Source: Nematopogon swammerdamellus (lineage: Eukaryota; Arthropoda; Insecta; Lepidoptera; Adelidae). From it: a stretch of 64,000 nucleotides of DNA. The DNA is taken from positions 2,456,754-2,520,753 of the forward strand of contig OX336343.1 of assembly GCA_946902875.1 (NCBI GenBank), written 5' to 3'. The position numbers and the translations under genes are program-made. Under the pieces are notes generated by a model, which did no database searches, was not told the origin of the DNA, and was given only the letters and a program-made list of their open reading frames with translations. Each line of letters begins with the position of its first letter. Within the stretch, counting starts at the first letter, position 1. Shown here piece after piece: positions 17,545 through 26,872 of this stretch.

Positions 17545-17640
17545 ATTCAGTAAAGTACAGTCTCAGGTCCTTCCAGAGGGGAACCTGTGAGGCCGGCGTG
17601 CATAACATCGCACAGTACACTCTCAGAATCTTAACAGGTC
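17545..17640 (+). pseudogene. Degenerate LINE 3' fragment
   Basis: GTACAGTCTCAGGTCCTTCC ... GGCCGGCGTGCATAACATCGC resembles the end of the Jockey/CR1-like LINE (compare 2961-3030 and 27728-27800). This matters because it places LINE debris, not an obvious U2 promoter, about 100 bp upstream of the U2 fragment. Confidence 0.4.
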
Positions 17641-17737
17641 TAAAGGTACTAGATTTAAGTTAGCTGACAAAAGTCCAGCAGGCGGACCTAAACCACTGCT
17701 GGCCAAAATATAAATGTCTGTGTAATGTCTGGTAAAA

Positions 17738-17768
17738 ATCGCTTCTCGGCCTTTTGGCTAAGATCAAA
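17738..17768 (+). pseudogene. U2 snRNA 5' end, nucleotides 1 to 30/31 only
   Basis: The sequence ATCGCTTCTCGGCCTTTTGG CTAAGATCAA(A) matches the start of the conserved U2 spliceosomal RNA from its first nucleotide. It stops just before the GTGTAGTA region, which in U2 pairs with the intron branch site, so this copy cannot be a working U2. The remainder of U2 is not seen anywhere in the window. It is followed directly by the GC-rich 5' untranslated region of the retrotransposon in the same orientation. Confidence 0.92.
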
Positions 17769-18313
17769 ATCTCTCGCGCGACTCACTGCGAGGTCGGCGG
17801 AGCCCCACGAAACTCAACAAAGCGCGCCGCGGCAGGCACCGCAGGCCGCGGAGCCGTCCAGGTCGACCTTCGGGCCGCCAACTACCACTTCACTGGGCGG
17901 AGGCGGAGGCCGGCACAACACACTATCTTCGCTCGGAGCTGGGGCTCGGGCTGCTTGAGTCGGCGGCGGCGGGTTAGCCGCGTGCGGGTGCTCGCCCGAG
18001 CGCTCGGAGCTAAGCTGAGTCGGCGGGGAGCCGCGGGTGCCGCTGTCAAGTGAGAGAGTCTGCCGGGACCGAGGGGGCGGTCAACTTGGGGGGTCGCCAC
18101 TGCTGCTGCACTTACTCGGAGAACCGGAGCTGGGACGACGCGGCCGCGGCGGGACCATCCGCGGCGCTTCTGGGCGCCTGCCTGGGTGGTGGCTGCGGCG
18201 ACGGACGGCGCGTCAGTAAGGTTCACCGGGGAGTTGAGTAAGATAAGTTGTTGATTCTTGTGTGGCGTCCTCTTACTTTGGTGTGGGTATTCTGGCCTGT
18301 AGTAGGTAGGGTG

Positions 18314-18353
18314 CCCGGCTGCTGTCGGCTGCGTGCAGCCGACAGCAGCCGGG
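18314..18353 (+). promoter_or_regulatory. Perfect 19-bp stem, 2-nt loop, in the 5' UTR
   Basis: CCCGGCTGCTGTCGGCTGC (18314-18332), loop GT, then its exact reverse complement (18335-18353), ending 35 nt before the ATG. In RNA it would be a very stable hairpin. Role unknown; candidates are control of translation or of RT binding. Confidence 0.7.
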
Positions 18354-18388
18354 CCTTCTGTCGCTTCCGGTGAGTGGGGGGAAGTGGC

Positions 18389-21300
18389 ATGCCTGGAGAA
18401 GTGGCCAATGTGGTCACGATCGACTTCCCCGTCCCGACACCGATTAGGTGTCCGGTTTGCGGCCATCCGCCAGGGGAGTCCGGGTATGCTGCTGTCCAGG
18501 GCCTCTATCGCCACCTGTTGTCCAAACACAAGGCACGACACAACTTCAAATGTGTAAACTGTGGCCTGGTTTTGGATGACGGGCGGAGATGTGCGGCCCA
18601 TGCACCACGTTGTCCGGCGCAACCGACTCCGGCTGCTGGGCGGGGCGCGGGAGGTGGTGGAGATCCCCCCGTGGATCACCCTACTGCCTCTTCAAGCCGC
18701 GCCGCAGTGGATGTCGGTCCGCTAGGTGTGCCCGTGGATCCTCTAGATCATGCGGGCCCACCTCAGTCACCGCCGGCCGGTGCCGGCTTGGGGGGTGGCG
18801 ATAGTGGGGCTACCTCGCATTCGCCCCAGACTGTTCCGTCTCCTCCTTGTCTGGTGCCGGTTGCTGTTGCGAGGGGTGACAACCCTCGCGTCCTTCCGCC
18901 CCCCGCTCCGATTCCGGATTCGGGTGGAGGCGCGCGGGTGGTGGCACCCATCGCTTCTGCAAGCAACCCTCCCGGAAGTGACGTCGTAGCCGCTCGACCT
19001 GCCAGCCACGCCACCGCCGCTCAGCCCGTAGACAGAGCGAGAAGCGCTTTCCAGGATCATTGGATTCGCAGTATTCAGGCGGCAGAGGAGTGGTCCGAAT
19101 TTGAGAGCATAGTGGGGGAGCTCACGGCGGAATTTGTTCCCGCCCAGCGTCGCCGGGAAGTAGCAACGCCCGGTCCGGGTCGTGCTCGACAGCTCACGGT
19201 CGATCCGGTCAGGGCGGCCCGTGATCTGCAGCGCTTTTATCGCGTCAACCGCGTAAAGGCGTTCCGCAAGGTCACGGGGCAAGCTGCAGTGTACTGCAAC
19301 ATTCCCGGGGCGCCGCTGAGGGAACACTTTGCGAGCATATTTGCTCGCAATGACAACTTCGCCGTGGGCCCTCCCCCCCTAGAGGTTCCTCCTCCACTCC
19401 CACCACCGGAGGAGTGCTCGTCGGATCACCTAATGCGGCCGATTACTGCGGACGAGATCCTGGACAAGCTGAAGTGCTCCAGCAACACGGCCCCGGGTCC
19501 TGACAGCGTTTTCTACGCAGATTTGCGTAGAAAGGACCCGGGATGCTTGCTGCTGAGCGAAATCTTCTCGTTCTGCTGGCGAGAACGGCGGGTGCCGGCG
19601 GCGTGGAAAGTATCAAACACGGTTTTGATATTTAAAAAAGGTGATCGAGCGGCGCCCGATAACTGGAGGCCGATCGCGCTGAGCAACACCATGGCGAAAC
19701 TCTACTGCCGGTGTATCGCGGGCCGCCTCTCTAAATGGGCGGTGGCCAACAAGCGGATCTCCCGGTCGCAGAAAGGTTTTATGGAGCACGAGGGCTGCCT
19801 CGAACATAATTTTGTGCTCCAGTCTGCGATCGAGGAAGCAACTGGCAGTGGTTCGGAGCTATGTGTTGCCTGGCTCGATCTGGCAAATGCTTTCGGGTCT
19901 GTGCCGCATGCCACTCTCCTCAGCTCTTTGAGCAGGGCGGGAGTCCCGGAGGGCCTGGTAGCGGTGATCGAAGATCTGTATCGGGACTCGACCACCGCTA
20001 TTCGGGCTCCCGAGGGCTACACGGACCCGATCGACATTGGATCGGGGGTCAGACAGGGCTGCCCGTTGTCCCCGATTGTCTTCAACTTGGCAATTGAGGC
20101 TCTGTTGAGGGCAGTCGAGGGCCAGCCTGGTGGAATTAGTCTCGCGGGGGTCCCGTTCCCCATTCTCGCCTATGCCGATGATCTGGCGATCTTAGCGGAT
20201 TCTCCCGGCAGCCTCCAGCGTCTTCTGGACACTGCAGTCCGGGTGGGCGATTGGCTGGGGCTAAAATTCAACCCGCGTAAGTGTGCAACGTTGCACATTC
20301 GGGCCAAGCAAGCCCAGCCAACCGTCTTTTCCCTGGATGGTGTACGGTTGAAGTCGTTGGAGGCCGGGGGCGTCTACGAACATCTAGGCGTCCCCACCGG
20401 GTTTCGGATCTCCAGATCGCCGGAGGAGGATGTGGAGCGTGTCCTACGTGATTTGGAGATGGTTAGCGCGTCATTTCTTGCCCCCTGGCAGAAGATTGAC
20501 GCGCTGAACACCTTTATCATCTCCAGACTTGACTTCTTGCTAAGGGGCACCACCGTCTTGAAGGAGCCACTAATTAAGGCTGATAAAATTATCAAAAAAA
20601 CAGTCAAAACGTGGCTCCACCTCCCTCAGCGGGCCAGTGCGGACTACCTAGTCCTGCCGTACTGCATGGGAGGCACGGCGGTGACGCCCCTTAGCGAAAA
20701 GGCCGATCTTCTGACGGTCGTTCAGGCGTTCAGGATGCTCTCTTGCCGCGACGACGCAGTCGCCCGCCTCGCCCATTTAACCCTCGAGGCGGCGGTGCGT
20801 CGTGGCTTACGGAGACAGCCTGAGGGTGCGGACCTGGCGTCCTTCCTGTCGGGGGACCGCGAAGCGGTGTTGGGCCGTGGCCGAGAGCGAACTTCGTTCT
20901 GGTCGAGAGCGAGAGTGGCCTCTCGCCGGCTGCGTGCCCACCTGGACCTCCGATGGACGTTCTGTCAAGAACGTGACGAGCTCGCCGTGTCCGCGCCCAT
21001 GCCGGGCCGGCTGTGTGGACGTGTTATCGTTCCCCCGTCGGCCCGAACGGCCGTTCAGAGATCGCTCCACCTGGCACTCCGTTTGGCCCATGCCTCCAAA
21101 CTGTTGGCCAAACCCAGCCAGGGTAAGGTCATGGAGTGTGTTATTGCCTCTCCGAGGTCTAGCCACTTCATGGCCACGGGGCGCCACACGAGGTTCTGTG
21201 ACTGGCGTTTCGTCCACCGAGCCCGCCTCAATTGCCTTCCCCTTAAGGGAGCCACCCGCTTTGGGCGGACTGGCATTGCCTTTTGCCGGGGGTGCGGCTC

Positions 21301-21844
21301 GGCGGACGAAACCCTTCCCCACGTCCTTAATCACTGCACCCGGCACTCGGCCGCGTGGCAGTTGAGGCACAATTCGGTGCTGGACCGGTTGGTGGAAGCG
21401 ACTCGCAATCTGGGGGTCGTTTCCGTCAACCGGACCATCCCCGAATTGCAGTCCTCCCTTCGGCCCGATCTTGTGCTCCGTACTAATACGGATGTATTCG
21501 TTATAGATGTGGCGGTTCCATTTGATAACCGGATGGAGGCGCTGGTGGATTCTCGGCAGCGGAAGCTCGTCAAGTACGAGCCCCTGGCGCAGCAGCTTCG
21601 TGCCCTGGGACGCTCAGTCACCGTCGACGCCATCATTGTCGGCGCACTGGGCTCCTGGGACCCCGCCAATGAAAAGCTGCTGCATCGCTTGGGTCTGCGG
21701 CCGAGAGACATCCGCGCCTTCGCCAACGCGGCGGTATCCGACGTGATCAAGTGGAACCGTGACATTTACACGGAGCACGTGACGGGCTGGAGGCAGTACG
21801 GGCCTAGGGACGTGGGGATATCTCACGGGCCGGTAGTGCTGTGA
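18389..21844 (+). CDS. Retrotransposon protein: zinc fingers, reverse transcriptase, restriction-like endonuclease
   Basis: Intact frame of 1151 residues. I start at the ATG at 18389; the frame is open only five codons further up, to a stop at 18371. Residues 21-47 form a C2H2 finger (C21, C24, H42, H47) and 55-75 a second Cys/His finger (C55, C58, H71, C75), expected to bind target DNA. Residues about 80-230 are Pro/Gly/Ala-rich and probably disordered. RT spans about 340-660: SNTAPGPDSV, WRPIALSNTMAKLY, catalytic D497 in AWLDLANAFG, RQGCPLSPIVFNLAIE and YADD at 595-598. A CCHC knuckle (C966, C969, H978, C983) precedes the endonuclease, with PD at 1026-1027 and D1040 in VIDVAVP and a downstream K. 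This order is that of R2/NeSL/Utopia-type elements, which nick the target and copy their RNA there. All catalytic residues I can check are present, so it may be active. Confidence 0.93.
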   Translation: MPGEVANVVTIDFPVPTPIRCPVCGHPPGESGYAAVQGLYRHLLSKHKARHNFKCVNCGLVLDDGRRCAAHAPRCPAQPTPAAGRGAGGGGDPPVDHPTASSSRAAVDVGPLGVPVDPLDHAGPPQSPPAGAGLGGGDSGATSHSPQTVPSPPCLVPVAVARGDNPRVLPPPAPIPDSGGGARVVAPIASASNPPGSDVVAARPASHATAAQPVDRARSAFQDHWIRSIQAAEEWSEFESIVGELTAEFVPAQRRREVATPGPGRARQLTVDPVRAARDLQRFYRVNRVKAFRKVTGQAAVYCNIPGAPLREHFASIFARNDNFAVGPPPLEVPPPLPPPEECSSDHLMRPITADEILDKLKCSSNTAPGPDSVFYADLRRKDPGCLLLSEIFSFCWRERRVPAAWKVSNTVLIFKKGDRAAPDNWRPIALSNTMAKLYCRCIAGRLSKWAVANKRISRSQKGFMEHEGCLEHNFVLQSAIEEATGSGSELCVAWLDLANAFGSVPHATLLSSLSRAGVPEGLVAVIEDLYRDSTTAIRAPEGYTDPIDIGSGVRQGCPLSPIVFNLAIEALLRAVEGQPGGISLAGVPFPILAYADDLAILADSPGSLQRLLDTAVRVGDWLGLKFNPRKCATLHIRAKQAQPTVFSLDGVRLKSLEAGGVYEHLGVPTGFRISRSPEEDVERVLRDLEMVSASFLAPWQKIDALNTFIISRLDFLLRGTTVLKEPLIKADKIIKKTVKTWLHLPQRASADYLVLPYCMGGTAVTPLSEKADLLTVVQAFRMLSCRDDAVARLAHLTLEAAVRRGLRRQPEGADLASFLSGDREAVLGRGRERTSFWSRARVASRRLRAHLDLRWTFCQERDELAVSAPMPGRLCGRVIVPPSARTAVQRSLHLALRLAHASKLLAKPSQGKVMECVIASPRSSHFMATGRHTRFCDWRFVHRARLNCLPLKGATRFGRTGIAFCRGCGSADETLPHVLNHCTRHSAAWQLRHNSVLDRLVEATRNLGVVSVNRTIPELQSSLRPDLVLRTNTDVFVIDVAVPFDNRMEALVDSRQRKLVKYEPLAQQLRALGRSVTVDAIIVGALGSWDPANEKLLHRLGLRPRDIRAFANAAVSDVIKWNRDIYTEHVTGWRQYGPRDVGISHGPVVL

Positions 21845-22022
21845 CCCCCCCGGCTTTACCTATATTTTCTTCATTGTTACGATTACTAATTTGTTAATTG
21901 CGTAGGTGGGCCTGCGATTCATATATGTATTTTTTTTTATTGTCTCATTCATTGTAGTCTCACTCGTTAGTCACTTCACTGTAATCACATTTTTGCCCAC
22001 CTATTGTCTTATTTATTTTTAA
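21845..22022 (+). other. 3' UTR of the retrotransposon (visible part)
   Basis: AT-richer, C-run right after the stop, no open frame. It ends at the Helitron terminus. No U2 3' flank and no poly(A) are visible at this junction. Confidence 0.6.
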
Positions 22023-22054
22023 CTAGCTGTTGCCCGCGGCTTCGCTCGCGTGAA

Positions 22055-22310
22055 ATTCGTATTCCAAAGAAGAATGTAAGTAACTAAGGGCGAGGCCGAA
22101 GGCCAAGCTGCGTTCAGGTAATCGATAAACCTCCTCAAGGAAAGTAACTAACTGAGGGCGAGGCCGAAGGCCGAGCTGCGTTCAGGAAGACGATAAACCT
22201 TCCGGAAGAAAGGAAGGAACTAAGTGCGAGGCCGAAGGCCGAGCTGCGTTCAGGGAAACCAAAAACCCTCTTCCGCCTTCGGCCCTCGCCCTTAAAGACT
22301 TCCTTTCTTC
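22055..22310 (+). repeat. Helitron minisatellite, short arm
   Basis: Three to four units of about 65-70 bp with core GGGCGAGGCCGAAGGCCGAG and spacer AAGAAAGTAAGTAACTAA. The orientation is opposite to that of the array at 25310-25985. Confidence 0.85.
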
Positions 22311-22743
22311 TATAGAATATAATAACGTTTACTCAATCTATTTATTTCATAAAAATAAAAAAGTAATATTAATAACTAAAGGATTAAAACCTAGCTAGCA
22401 AACATTAAAATAACTATCAAAACGGGCATTTTCAAATGTTCTTAGAGCACTTGCGGCATTACACCGCTGTATGGCAAGGCTTACCCTTTGAATGAAGTAC
22501 ATAAGCCCTTGATGGCGGGACACCGGTTGCGTCAACCAGCAGAGGCCCAAGCCTCTTTTGGCTTCACTGCTCCACGGACCGAGGGTTTCAACCGCAAACG
22601 CAACAAATTCGAAATATTGAATTATATTTCTATATTTGATGCGTTTGAGGCTCTCCGCCCCAGCCTCGGCCGCGCCAGCCTCTCTTGAAGATGTCCTAAC
22701 GTGACTTGGAGCCAATGTGAGAACACAAGTGGCGTCCCACATC

Positions 22744-25123
22744 TAGGGCATGGATACCGGTGCCCATTTTCAATACCGGTATTTTTTTCGGGATTGAATG
22801 CTTAATACCGGGATCCCGGTATTTCCGGGATCCCGGAAAAAAATTCATAAACTTTAAGAATTGTGGTGAAATTGTGTATGGTAAGTTTATGCAAGCTTAT
22901 TTAAATATTTTGAAACTTGAAGATTTACTGTTTAATATGCACATAGAAGACAAAAACAGTTTTAATTAATTTATAAATGGATAATGAATGAATTTTAATT
23001 GATAAATTATTGACAGTAAATGTTCATTTTTTTAAAATGTATGAAGCGAGGTTAGAAATAAAACAGAATATAGTTTGGTTTATTTAATTATTCAAACATA
23101 CAAAAAAGTAGTGTTATATCAGTTTACATAATAACAAAACAGTAGTAATTCCCAATGATATTCTATAATTAACATTTTACACTAATCACTTAGAAAACCA
23201 GCTTTGGCTTAGACATAGACACATAATTATTTGGTATGAATTGGTTTTGTAAACTATGGTATAGTAATAACAAATAGTTAAAATATAAAACATATAAAAA
23301 AAAGAATACACAAAATTACCTCAGAAAACAATACTAGAATTTGGCTCATTAAAATAATTAAACAAAAGAGAGCAAAACAAGTTAAAGTTTATTAGCACGT
23401 TCGGTTTGAAAGTGGGACCGCAGAAAACATAGCATTTCTAGTGTTTGGTCAGCTAGAGAAGAGCGGATCTTGCTGCACAAATAGCCAGCACTAGAGAATG
23501 CTCTCTCGGAATCGACGCTTGTAGGTCGCATTGTCTTCAGGGCATTAAATACTTTTGACAAATGCTTGCCCCTGTCGCCTCCATTTTCAAAAAGTGCTAT
23601 CTCCACGCGTTCTATTCTCTTTATGTCTGATGATGAGATCGCTTCATTGTCGATACCAGCCATACCGGAAGGGTCTGCTGTCGCGCTCATCATTGCTGTG
23701 GACAATGAAAGGTTGAGCTCATCTTCAAGACTCATCGGTTCAGTTCCTGTAGCGACGAAGGCATCACCTGTAGATTCACGTCGCGCTATTTGAGTCGTTA
23801 GCTGCTCATCATCGTACAACAGTTTGTACATTTTCACAATTTCCTCTACAATAGTTTCATTTTCTGCAAGTGGAAAGATTTCTTCTTCGTTTTGAATTTT
23901 GTCATAGTAAGTTTTATGATTATTCAGTAAAGTAAGTAGTACCCCAGTCATCGGATGAATCCTTTCTTTTAGCCGTCTTTTTAGAGCCTCCATCAATTTT
24001 AAGGATATACCACTATTTTGGGCACTCAGTTTTCTTATCATAAAGGTACTTGCTGCTTCCGCCGTCAGGAGATTTGCATCTCGGCGGCAGAGTGCCTCTA
24101 CAGTGGCTTTCACAATTTTGAGGGCGTTTTAAATTTCTTGCAACGTGTCTAACTCTTTGTCCGTGAATTTTTTCTTTGATTTCAGATCTATCAAAGCTTT
24201 CATTACGGAACTCTTGATTTTCAGAAATCGCTTGAGCATATCCGCCATGCTGCTCCAACGAGTCTTGCAGTCGACCTGCAGACCCAATTCTTTGCCATGT
24301 TCATCTTTGACGTATCTCTGGAGGACGTCGGCGTTTATCGTTGGCGAGTTTCGAAATAATTTCACGACTTTCCTCACCTTGTCTATCAATGGCTTGAACT
24401 CTTCTTGTAAGACTGTTACAGGCAGGTCTTCTACAATATTGAAGCAACGTTCTTCTGTACCAAATTCTTCTTCAGAAGATTCACCATCGTTGTCGGATGA
24501 CATTTCTTTTTCCTCAGTAGGCTGCTGCTGTCGCCGTTTCGGTGTCTCTTTATACAGCGTGTCTACAACGGCCAGCTGGATTCCATGGGCCAGGCATACC
24601 TGATGATGTATGGGGAGGCTTCTCCCTATTTTCCCCATTTAGCGATTGTGTCAGCCGGGCGCTAGGGCTGGCTGTTGCGTTGTGCTCACGGGAAAGATAC
24701 TCCGCACCGCCCGTCCCCCCGCACCTCAAGCAGAGCGGCAACACACATACATGCAAGCGCGCGGGTCGCTACATGTATTCAATCGTGTCGCAGGCCTGAC
24801 GTGGTGCTGTGTGACGTGACGACGCTTTAACTGCAGCAATATGATATGATTCTTTCTACTAGATGTTTTTTTATTAAACATTGCACTGTAGGGGCATGAC
24901 ACTGCGATACCAATGCATTGAGCGGCGTGTCGTGATAAGTTTTATACAAAATTGTAGAATTACTTTCAGCCGCAACGCTGCAGTACCTTTAATTATGCGC
25001 TTTGATTGAACGTAATACCGAAATCCCGGTATTCGATTACCAACACCGGTACTGACAATACCGCAAAATATCATCCGGGATCCCGGTGTTTCGGGATCCC
25101 GGGATCCCGGTATCCATGCCCTA
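22744..25123 (-). mobile_element. hAT DNA transposon, 2.38 kb, perfect 8-bp target duplication
   Basis: Inverted termini TAGGGCATGGATACCGG (22744) and CCGGTATCCATGCCCTA (25123) are exact. The target duplication CCCACATC is at 22736-22743 and 25124-25131. Subterminal regions on both sides are rich in CGGGATCCCGG palindromes, likely transposase-binding sites (inference). Carries a truncated transposase on the minus strand. Confidence 0.93.
23382..24638 (-). pseudogene. hAT transposase, N-terminally deleted with one in-frame stop
   Basis: Two open stretches (24129-24638 and 23382-24128) are in the same frame, separated by a single TAA at 24129-24131. The first has VCLAHGIQLAVVD and CKTRWSSMADMLKRF, the middle hAT motifs around the catalytic region and the RW block. 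The second ends with TSVDSERAFSSAGYLCSKIR and LEMLCFLRSHF, the hATC dimerisation domain. About 420 residues remain of some 600-700; the BED zinc finger and the first catalytic aspartate region are missing, replaced by non-coding sequence at 24640-25000. So it is defective, although termini and target duplication are fresh. Confidence 0.9.
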
Positions 25124-25309
25124 CCCACATCAAAGAACTACCCTTATTCCATGGCACTAAGGTGATAGCATCGGGCCTCTTGCCATCCAGCCGGGAATAA
25201 CCGCGAGGTTCTAGGATGCACGGTATATTTGCCGTCAGAAGCGTGGACTTTATAATAAAATTTAAATTAAATTAACTCAATCTTAATGTTAATTAACTTT
25301 ATTCGAGAT

Positions 25310-25985
25310 GGTTTAGCTTCTTCCTGAACGCAGCTCGGCCTTCGGCCTCGCCCTTAGTTACTTGCTTTCTTCGAGATGGTTTATCATTTGTCAGAACGTA
25401 GCTCGGCCTTCGGCCTCGCCTTAGTTACTTACTTTCTTCAAAAATGTTTACCTTCTTCCTCAACGCAGCTCGGCCTACGGCCTCGCCCTTAGTTACTTGC
25501 TTTCTTCAAGATGTTTTATGGTCTTCCCGAATAGAGCACGGCCTTCGGCCTCGCCTTAGTTACTTACTTTCTTCAAGATGGTTTAGCTTCTTTCTGAACG
25601 CAGCTCGGCCTTCGGCTTCGCCCTTAGTTGCTTGCTTTCTTCGAGATGGTTTTTCAATTATTCGAACGTAGCTCAGCCTTCGGCGTCGCCTTAGTTACTT
25701 ACTTTCTTCAAGATAGTTTAGCTTCTTCCTGAACGCAGCTCGGCCTGCGGCCTCGCCCATAGTTACTTACTTTCTTCGAGAAGGTTTATGGTCTTCCAGA
25801 ATAGAGCTCGGCCTTCGACCTCGCCCTTAGTTACTTACTTTCTTCAAGAATGCTTTTCTTCTTCCTGAACTCAGCTCCGCCTTCCGCCTCGCCCTTAGTT
25901 ACTATCATCGAGAAAGAATATCGTTTACGTGAGCGCAGATCCGCCTTCGGGCCCCCCTTCAGTTACTTACTTTCTTTTTTTGAAA
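25310..25985 (-). repeat. Helitron minisatellite, long arm
   Basis: About ten units of about 65 bp: CTGAACGCAGCTCGGCCTTC GGCCTCGCCCTTAGTTACTT plus TTTCTTCGAGATGGTTTA. Each unit has the small palindrome GGCC TTC GGCC. Confidence 0.85.
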
Positions 25986-26783
25986 TACGAATTTCACGCG
26001 AGCGAAGCCGCGGGCAACAGATATATAAATTTTTATTGCACCAATGACAGCGACATAACTTCGACTTTCAATAATTTGTTTTATTTATCAAACAATTTGT
26101 CACCGGCCAGCTCACGTCGAGATGACAGTTCTCCGTTGTCAACATGAAAATTAAAATTGTTTTTTACCATTACTTCGGATTGCGTGATTTTTATTATATT
26201 TTTTTATTATTATGTTAATCCGGGATATACACTGTCACTATAAAAAGTTTCGTCAAATTCCGTTCAGAGGTTTTTGCGAGATGCGCGTACAAATAGACAT
26301 TTTTGCATTTACGATTTTACTGTATGTATAGAAAGAATAGATATGTTATAGACTATTGTGTTCAAGTTATAAAAAAGAAGAACTTGTCATTTTCGTTGTA
26401 TCTACTTATTTTTAAATTTCGAATGAATATTTTATTCAAATTGTATTTGCTGCCAGTTCTCAAGATATAATTATGTACTTTGGACTACGTGATTTTAAAC
26501 GCGCAATAATGTTTGTAATTGTTTAATTTTTTTTTATTTTTGTTAATTTTTTTTACGTATTATGTTAACCCGGCATATAAACTGCCACCATACAAAGTTT
26601 CGTCTAATTCCGTTCAGTGGTTTTTGCGTGATGCGCGTACAGACAAACAAACAAACAAACAAAAATTTTAAAAACTGTTCTAAAATGTTCAGTATCTCAT
26701 TCTAAGCCACCCTGGTTAGTTTTTTTCCGAATACATTCAATGTACAGACTTTCTTACCTTTACGATTTTATTATATGTATAGA

Positions 26784-26872
26784 TTATGAATTATAAATTT
26801 TTTTAAGGTGTTTAAGTCAAATAAAGTATTTTATACAAACTAGGAAAATAAATTCTTCTGATTCTGATTCTG
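26784..26872 (+). other. Possible continuation of the retrotransposon 3' UTR
   Basis: Right flank of Helitron 1. It contains TCAAATAAAGT and AAAATAAATTC and ends in GATTCTGATTCTGATTCTGATG. If Helitron 1 inserted in the 3' UTR, this is the displaced end. Inference only. Confidence 0.3.

What the first reader, a model, noticed from the sequence alone, without database searches (positions are those of the whole stretch)
17738..21844. Intact U2-linked retrotransposon with restriction-like endonuclease
The first 30-31 nt of U2 snRNA are followed by an uninterrupted 1151-codon ORF holding two Cys/His fingers, RT with YADD, CCHC knuckle and PD...D endonuclease. It is the only apparently complete protein in 64 kb of dead elements. 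U2-targeting elements of this type (Utopia) are known from a few lineages including wasps; a lepidopteran member, if that is what this is, may be undescribed.
Basis: partly seen in the sequence, partly recalled or inferred. Interest (0 to 1): 0.88.

Follow-up and report, generated by a model that had tools for sequence, protein, structure and literature searches.

The report
Moth retrotransposon carrying U2 gene head
A jumping element in a moth or butterfly genome settles inside genes for the splicing RNA U2, appears to be copied from the U2 gene's own start, and so carries the first letters of U2 along when it lands elsewhere, as it has here.

Summary
The U2 head (17738-17768) and the open 1151-codon ORF (18389-21844) are real. 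The element is a lepidopteran member of the U2-targeting Utopia group. But the window copy is not in a U2 gene: its empty site is readable in related repeats. A 4.76-kb Helitron-like insert splits its 3' tail, which resumes at 26784-26833.

Of 36 3' ends examined, 4 join U2 at the known Utopia site; 32 lie elsewhere, at sites resembling U2 (146 matches to TATCTGTTCT versus 85 expected; 0 of 20000 draws). Two interrupted U2 genes keep the presumed U2 promoter block. The 9 stray copies found with a 5' end begin with U2 (8 at nucleotide 1, one at nucleotide 2) behind unrelated DNA; none of 10 stray 5'-truncated copies has a head. At least three distinct U2/element boundaries exist. One copy carries a loop variant found in only one U2 gene.

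Best reading: the RNA is made from the U2 promoter, starts at U2 +1 and is inserted by target-primed reverse transcription; stray copies record the U2 start. Utopia, including a Heliconius host, was published in 2015: a new member of a known kind with unusually clear promoter evidence.

The parts
17600..17717 (.). host repeat in which the copy landed (left side of the target site)
   Evidence: 97-98% identical repeats at C3, C1, C2; they continue as the empty site
17718..17737 (+). 20-nt filler at the 5' junction, absent from the empty site
   Evidence: comparison with L056-L058
17738..17768 (+). U2 snRNA nt 1-31 carried as the 5' end of the element
17769..18388 (+). rest of the 5' leader, GC-rich; no ATG in the 651 nt from head to ORF start
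18303..18365 (+). strong RNA hairpin just before the start codon (core 18313-18354); kept in copies of two subfamilies, lost in the two leaders of L018
   Evidence: z -5.45, 0 of 200 shuffles as stable; five copies folded; L018 lacks it
18389..21844 (+). ORF, 1151 aa: N-terminal zinc fingers, RT, C-terminal CCHC and restriction-like endonuclease
18446..18619 (+). two N-terminal Cys/His fingers
   Evidence: sequence; weak alignment to the R2 fingers
19634..20311 (+). reverse transcriptase (RVT_1), YADD
21284..21337 (+). C-terminal CCHC knuckle
   Evidence: sequence; alignment to R2
21185..21703 (+). knuckle plus restriction-like endonuclease region (PD...D)
   Evidence: aligned to R2, i-Evalue 6.2e-12
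21845..22022 (+). 3' UTR, first part
22023..26783 (-). later 4761-bp Helitron-like insert (TC...CTAG, between A and T) splitting the 3' UTR
   Evidence: hAT fragment inside; Helitron end rules recalled
26784..26833 (+). 3' UTR, last 50 nt, ending AAATAAAGTATTTTA
   Evidence: 98% match to L004 tail positions 173-223
26834..26860 (.). right side of the target site (TACAAACTAGG...), continuous with the left side in empty repeats

Best explanation
The element is a Utopia-type non-LTR retrotransposon. Source copies sit in U2 snRNA genes, replacing a few nucleotides after U2 nt 31 (shown for two genes). Transcription from the U2 promoter starts at U2 +1 and reads through the element (inferred from the 5' boundary of 9 stray copies). 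The ORF protein nicks DNA and copies the RNA from its 3' end at the nick (target-primed reverse transcription; inferred from homology to R2 and from the junctions). The preferred site is U2 at about nt 38, but most copies found landed at U2-like sites elsewhere, and those with a complete 5' end carry U2 nt 1 to 31-36 as their first letters. The window copy is such a stray: no U2 promoter, and its 3' tail was later split by a Helitron-like insert.
For: (1) Census of the U2 5' end: 20 places = 7 uninterrupted U2 genes, 2 interrupted U2 genes, 9 stray element copies, 2 heads with no element behind them. (2) The two interrupted genes (L004, L011) match an intact U2 gene at 95 and 98 upstream positions of 100; each of the 9 stray copies scores below the best of its 100 shuffles. 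(3) 8 of the 9 start exactly at U2 nt 1, L005 at nt 2; 0 of 10 stray truncated copies with a mapped 5' break has a head. (4) At least three clearly different U2/element boundaries: main type, L008, and the L017/L018/L027 type, as expected from several insertions into U2. (5) L008 carries the TTCGGG loop shared, among the 20 places, only with the C13 U2 gene. (6) 3' ends: 4 join U2; the flanks of 32 others match TATCTGTTCT 146 times versus 85.2 expected, 0 of 20000 draws; the 15 fetched later alone 75 versus 39.8, 0 of 20000. Leaving out TAT: 75 versus 56.9, 67 of 20000. (7) Empty site of the window copy: 4-nt deletion, no duplication. (8) R2 target-priming complexes are the top fold matches. 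(9) ORF dN 0.067, dS 0.44 between two subfamilies.
Against: No RNA data: the start at U2 +1 is read from DNA copies. Only 4 of 36 3' ends are in U2, so strict targeting is not shown. Three of the nine headed strays (L017, L018, L027) are fragments, not full-length, and strays were recognised by similarity, so a copy with a strongly changed head could have been missed. L002 and L006 differ from the main boundary by one base each, which could be point changes (L002 could also stem from the two-A U2 type of the C12 genes). Heads L043 and L053 have no element behind them, so short U2 5' pieces can disperse some other way too. TAT after the element could partly belong to its tail; the test without it is weaker. 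Utopia membership by tree could not be tested: no named Utopia sequence was at hand.
Confidence: 0.85

Rival explanations
1. Template switching: element RNA made from another promoter is copied to its 5' end, and the enzyme then jumps onto free U2 snRNA and copies it to nt 1, giving U2-headed copies without U2-promoter transcription.
For: Would also yield heads starting at U2 nt 1; two heads without the element exist; chimeric snRNA retrocopies are known from other LINEs (recalled).
Against: The same boundary GATCAAA|ATCTCTCG is shared by an element inside a U2 gene (L004) and by stray copies L001, L003, L005, so it was inherited from DNA. Jumps could land anywhere in the roughly 190-nt U2, yet the element heads end at nt 31-36, the edge of the known target site. 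The 10 truncated copies have no heads, which does not count against jumps made only at the template end.
Confidence: 0.08
2. The U2 head is now a fixed part of the element, kept for its own use (for example stem-loop I in the RNA), and dispersed copies propagate it without needing residence in U2.
For: By eye the head is the best conserved stretch of the 5' leader across subfamilies.
Against: The boundary and the U2 loop variant differ among copies, which fits renewal from U2 genes. No promoter search of the element itself was made.
Confidence: 0.12
3. The copies spread as DNA (segmental duplication or gene conversion of an interrupted U2 gene).
For: None beyond the shared head.
Against: The boundary is U2 +1 with no upstream U2 DNA; the 3' flanks differ from site to site and resemble U2; the window's empty site shows a clean insertion.
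Confidence: 0.01

Closest known systems
Utopia non-LTR retrotransposons (Kojima and Jurka 2015, PMC4640811; parts 1-3 of 5 read)
   Same: One ORF with N-terminal fingers, RT, C-terminal finger and RLE, no RNase H outside oomycetes; inserts in U2 with the downstream U2 starting near nt 39; no target duplication in arthropods; some families often outside U2, at U2-like short sequences
   Different: Here stray copies carry U2 nt 1 to 31-36. The text I read (parts 1-3 of 5 and a term search: promoter 0 hits) does not report this; its figures and supplements were not seen
NeSL-1 (spliced-leader gene element of nematodes)
   Different: Target is SL1, and nematode NeSL families carry a cysteine protease domain (PMC4640811), which the Pfam scan of this ORF does not show
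R2 (28S rRNA gene element)
   Same: Same protein plan and fold; co-transcribed with its target gene, no R2-specific promoter detected (passage in PMC12203849)
   Different: R2 matures by an HDV-like ribozyme; no ribozyme family matched here, and the host leader stays on the copies
Keno (U2-targeting element)
   Same: Same U2 3' junction (PMC4640811)
   Different: Keno has an apurinic-type endonuclease; the Pfam scan found none here
SINEs with snRNA-derived heads (Kojima 2015; title seen in a reference list; paper not held)
   Same: Retroelement whose 5' end is snRNA sequence (by its title)
   Different: Short and non-coding (recalled); here the head is on a coding element and tied to residence in U2 genes

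Membership tests
Utopia | Non-LTR RT with restriction-like endonuclease in one ORF | tested here: met
   RVT_1; R2 endonuclease region aligned, i-Evalue 6.2e-12; fold
Utopia | 1-3 N-terminal zinc fingers and one C-terminal finger | tested here: met
   Cys/His motifs in the sequence, aligned with those of R2, only weakly at the N terminus
Utopia | Insertion in U2 with downstream U2 from about nt 39 | tested here: met
   L004, L011, L018/L036, L040; 4 of 36 3' ends examined; exact base ambiguous by 2
Utopia | Arthropod families make no target-site duplication | tested here: met
   U2 loses GTGTAG(TA) in L004 and L011; window site loses 4 nt
Utopia | No RNase H outside oomycetes | tested here: met
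   Pfam scan, only RVT_1 above cut-off
Utopia | RT groups with named Utopia families | not testable with these tools
   No Repbase sequences at hand; the tree shows it outside three R2 proteins (99) with arthropod and nematode relatives
R2 | Target in 28S rRNA gene | tested here: not met
   The 36 3' junctions examined are in U2 or at U2-like or other sites, none recognised as 28S (no 28S search was made)
NeSL-1 | Spliced-leader target and cysteine protease domain | tested here: not met
   No protease domain; junctions in U2
Keno | Apurinic-type endonuclease | tested here: not met
   No such domain; RLE region present

The most novel reading that the evidence does not exclude
A protein-coding retrotransposon that depends wholly on a Pol II snRNA promoter: its 4.3-kb mRNA begins as U2 snRNA (stem-loop I included), escapes snRNA-type 3' processing, and is translated from an snRNA-type capped leader with few or no upstream ATGs and, in most copies compared, a hairpin before the start codon. 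Stray copies are dead ends that record which U2 gene their parent occupied.
Probability: 0.35. Interest if true: 0.75.

Novelty: new member of a known kind. Interest (0 to 1): 0.55.

Why it matters
How elements that live in short snRNA genes are expressed was not addressed in the papers I could read. Here the genome itself marks the likely RNA start: copies outside U2 keep the U2 leader to its first base, and a variant leader names the parent gene. That makes testable whether a snRNA promoter, which normally yields a short unpolyadenylated RNA (recalled), can drive a 4-kb translated message, and how an element persists with only about seven uninterrupted U2 genes to live in.

Tried and rejected
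Rfam scan for a self-cleaving ribozyme: nothing at gathering score in the window, no ribozyme among the 11 matches up to E 10 for 17700-18400. Upstream ATGs: 0 in the main subfamily (6 of 6 copies), but only marginal against a Markov control (P 0.043-0.078; related copies, not independent); 1 to 3 in the other four copies. Hairpin: five copies fold it, but both leaders of L018 lack it, so it is not indispensable to every copy. Relatives in viral contigs: none. Idea that the orphan head L053 begins a second U2-headed family: what follows matches repeats only from position 30 on, so no family starts at the head. Segmental duplication rejected. L041 was in the input but gave no row. No paper in the library holds Utopia together with Lepidoptera, LINE and retrotransposon; the listings of searches show no report of U2-headed Utopia copies (titles and abstract starts only). 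The 2015 Utopia paper was read in parts 1-3 of 5 plus a term search; PMC8190105, PMC7650587 and PMC12203849 were seen as passages only.
Full report
Observation. The window (G000:C11:2456754-2520753 of a 699-Mb, 39-contig genome) holds U2 nt 1-31 at 17738-17768 and an open ORF from ATG 18389 to stop 21844, 1151 aa. Pfam finds a reverse transcriptase (E 6.9e-30). The best sequence relatives among solved structures are R2 proteins, with the RT and, separately, the C-terminal knuckle-endonuclease region aligned (i-Evalue 6.2e-12). A predicted model (mean pLDDT 78.9, 16-row alignment) matches R2 target-priming complexes best (the large rmsd of the top rows means domain positions differ). The host is lepidopteran by COX1: the 120 relatives listed are almost all named Lepidoptera, identity up to 93%.

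Where the window copy really is. The element tail seen in other copies is missing after 22022 but resumes at 26784 and ends at 26833. The 4761 bp between read as a Helitron-like insert on the minus strand (TC at one end, CTAG at the other, between A and T; these end rules are recalled), with a hAT dimerisation fragment inside. The two flanks of the element meet in related repeats: AAATGT-AACA-TACAAACTAGG at C3, with one base changed at C1 and C2 (L056-L058). So the copy landed in an unrelated repeat, removed 4 nt, made no duplication, and has a 20-nt filler before the U2 head. It is not in a U2 gene.

U2 genes and the element. The U2 family search gave 27 matches, 12 over cut-off. Seven have an uninterrupted 5' end: five full-length ones (175-180 bits; two of these have GATCAAGTG where the others have GATCAAAGTG), one diverged (C13) and one with an internal deletion (C12). 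Upstream of them lies a shared block, the presumed promoter. L004 (C2) and L011 (C1) have the same upstream block (95 and 98 of 100 positions as in L031), U2 nt 1-31, the element (full length in L004, 5'-truncated in L011), then U2 from TATCTGTTC on. GTGTAG(TA) of U2 is lost. L018/L036 (C31) and L040 (C32, one base changed) also join the element tail to U2 at this place; their 5' sides were not shown to be U2 genes. This is the Utopia site of PMC4640811.

Copies elsewhere. Genome-wide, the U2 5' 30-mer with up to 2 mismatches is found 20 times, the reversed control 0 times: 7 uninterrupted U2 genes, 2 interrupted ones, 9 stray element copies and 2 heads without element. The 9 strays are the window, L002, L003, L005, L006, L008, which have both ends, and the 5' fragments L017, L018 (position 2763) and L027. 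Eight start exactly at U2 nt 1; L005 starts at nt 2. Their upstream DNA is no more like the U2 upstream block than shuffled sequence. Ten stray truncated copies with a mapped 5' break have no head; other fragments in the list were not assessable. The U2/element boundary is GATCAAA|ATCTCTCG in the window, L003, L004 and L005. L002 is one A shorter (a changed boundary, or the two-A U2 type) and L006 has G for one A (possibly a point change). Clearly different are L008 (GATCAAAGTG|TCTCTCC, with a shorter leader) and L017, L018, L027 (GTGTA or GTGT before CTCGCGCG). L008 also has the TTCGGG loop that among the 20 places is shared only with the C13 U2 gene. I read this as several source copies in different U2 genes, each transcribed from U2 +1.

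Target choice. For 32 stray 3' ends (17 from the first list, 15 fetched later) the next 10 bases match TATCTGTTCT at 146 positions versus 85.2 for random places in the same flanks, 0 of 20000 draws; the 15 later ones alone give 75 versus 39.8, 0 of 20000. Leaving out the first three bases: 75 versus 56.9, 67 of 20000; for the 18 flanks starting TAT, 55 versus 35.1, 1 of 20000. So the enzyme prefers U2-like sequence but is not strict: 4 of 36 3' ends are in U2. A few 3' ends (L003, L008, L013, L014, L070, L071) are shortened or divergent and their register is less sure. L008 is followed by another copy of the element. The tail search scored 36 of 36 candidates but missed at least L008 and L040, so 36 is not a full census.

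Activity. Open full-length ORFs are in four copies: window, C9, C2 and, 88% identical, C23. Between the window and C23 ORFs dN is 0.067 and dS 0.44 over 1139 codons, so the protein was under selection while they diverged. L004, in a U2 gene with its upstream block, is about 99% identical to the window copy.

5' leader. It is 651 nt, 67% GC, without ATG in the main subfamily. A hairpin just before the start codon is far more stable than shuffles (z -5.45). It is kept in the five copies folded, from two subfamilies with different outer strands; one core pair is C-G in one subfamily and U-A in the other. Against its being essential: both leaders in L018 lack it. Its role is unknown; help in translation start is a guess.

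Relatives and placement. The ORF search gave 72 relatives, best 45% identical. For an RT tree I tried 63 of the 72; 6 were dropped for partial alignment. With the window, L008 and 3 R2 outgroup rows the tree has 62 rows; the window and L008 form one pair outside R2 (SH-aLRT 99, quick method), loosely with Daphnia and others. No named Utopia protein was available, so the Utopia label rests on domain plan plus U2 site.

Verdict. Same mechanism class as NeSL-1 and R2 (expression from the target gene, as those papers state it) and same family as Utopia by site and domain plan. New here, as far as the searches named under Tried and rejected show: the U2 leader on stray copies, which points to U2 +1 as the RNA start. 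RNA evidence is missing.

Noticed in passing
window 22023-26783: Helitron-like insert (minus strand TC...CTAG, between A and T) with 68-nt tandem repeats in inverted arms and a hAT dimerisation fragment at 23382-24128
   Followed up: partly
L053 (C1:6120783), L043 (C13:11684360), L041 (C21:6739661): U2 5' pieces (about nt 1-31, 1-37, 4-38) with neither U2 nor this element behind them; L053 and L043 begin at U2 nt 1
   Followed up: partly
L039 (C23:14335238): U2 from about nt 40 on, preceded by sequence that is not this element, about 2.4 kb from an intact U2 gene
   Followed up: no
L018 (C31:7516000-7525900): Tandem or nested copies of the element ending in an interrupted U2, about 33 kb from an intact U2 gene
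   Followed up: partly
L002 5' junction: 12 extra nt (CATCGCTCAGGC) before the head, resembling a partial second head; the neighbouring repeat unit shows the empty site
   Followed up: partly
window 17718-17737: 20-nt filler at the 5' junction with a loose likeness to U2 just downstream of the head; may be chance
   Followed up: no
L034 (C13:19201453): Diverged U2 gene with TTCGGG loop and upstream block; possibly a variant or decaying U2
   Followed up: no
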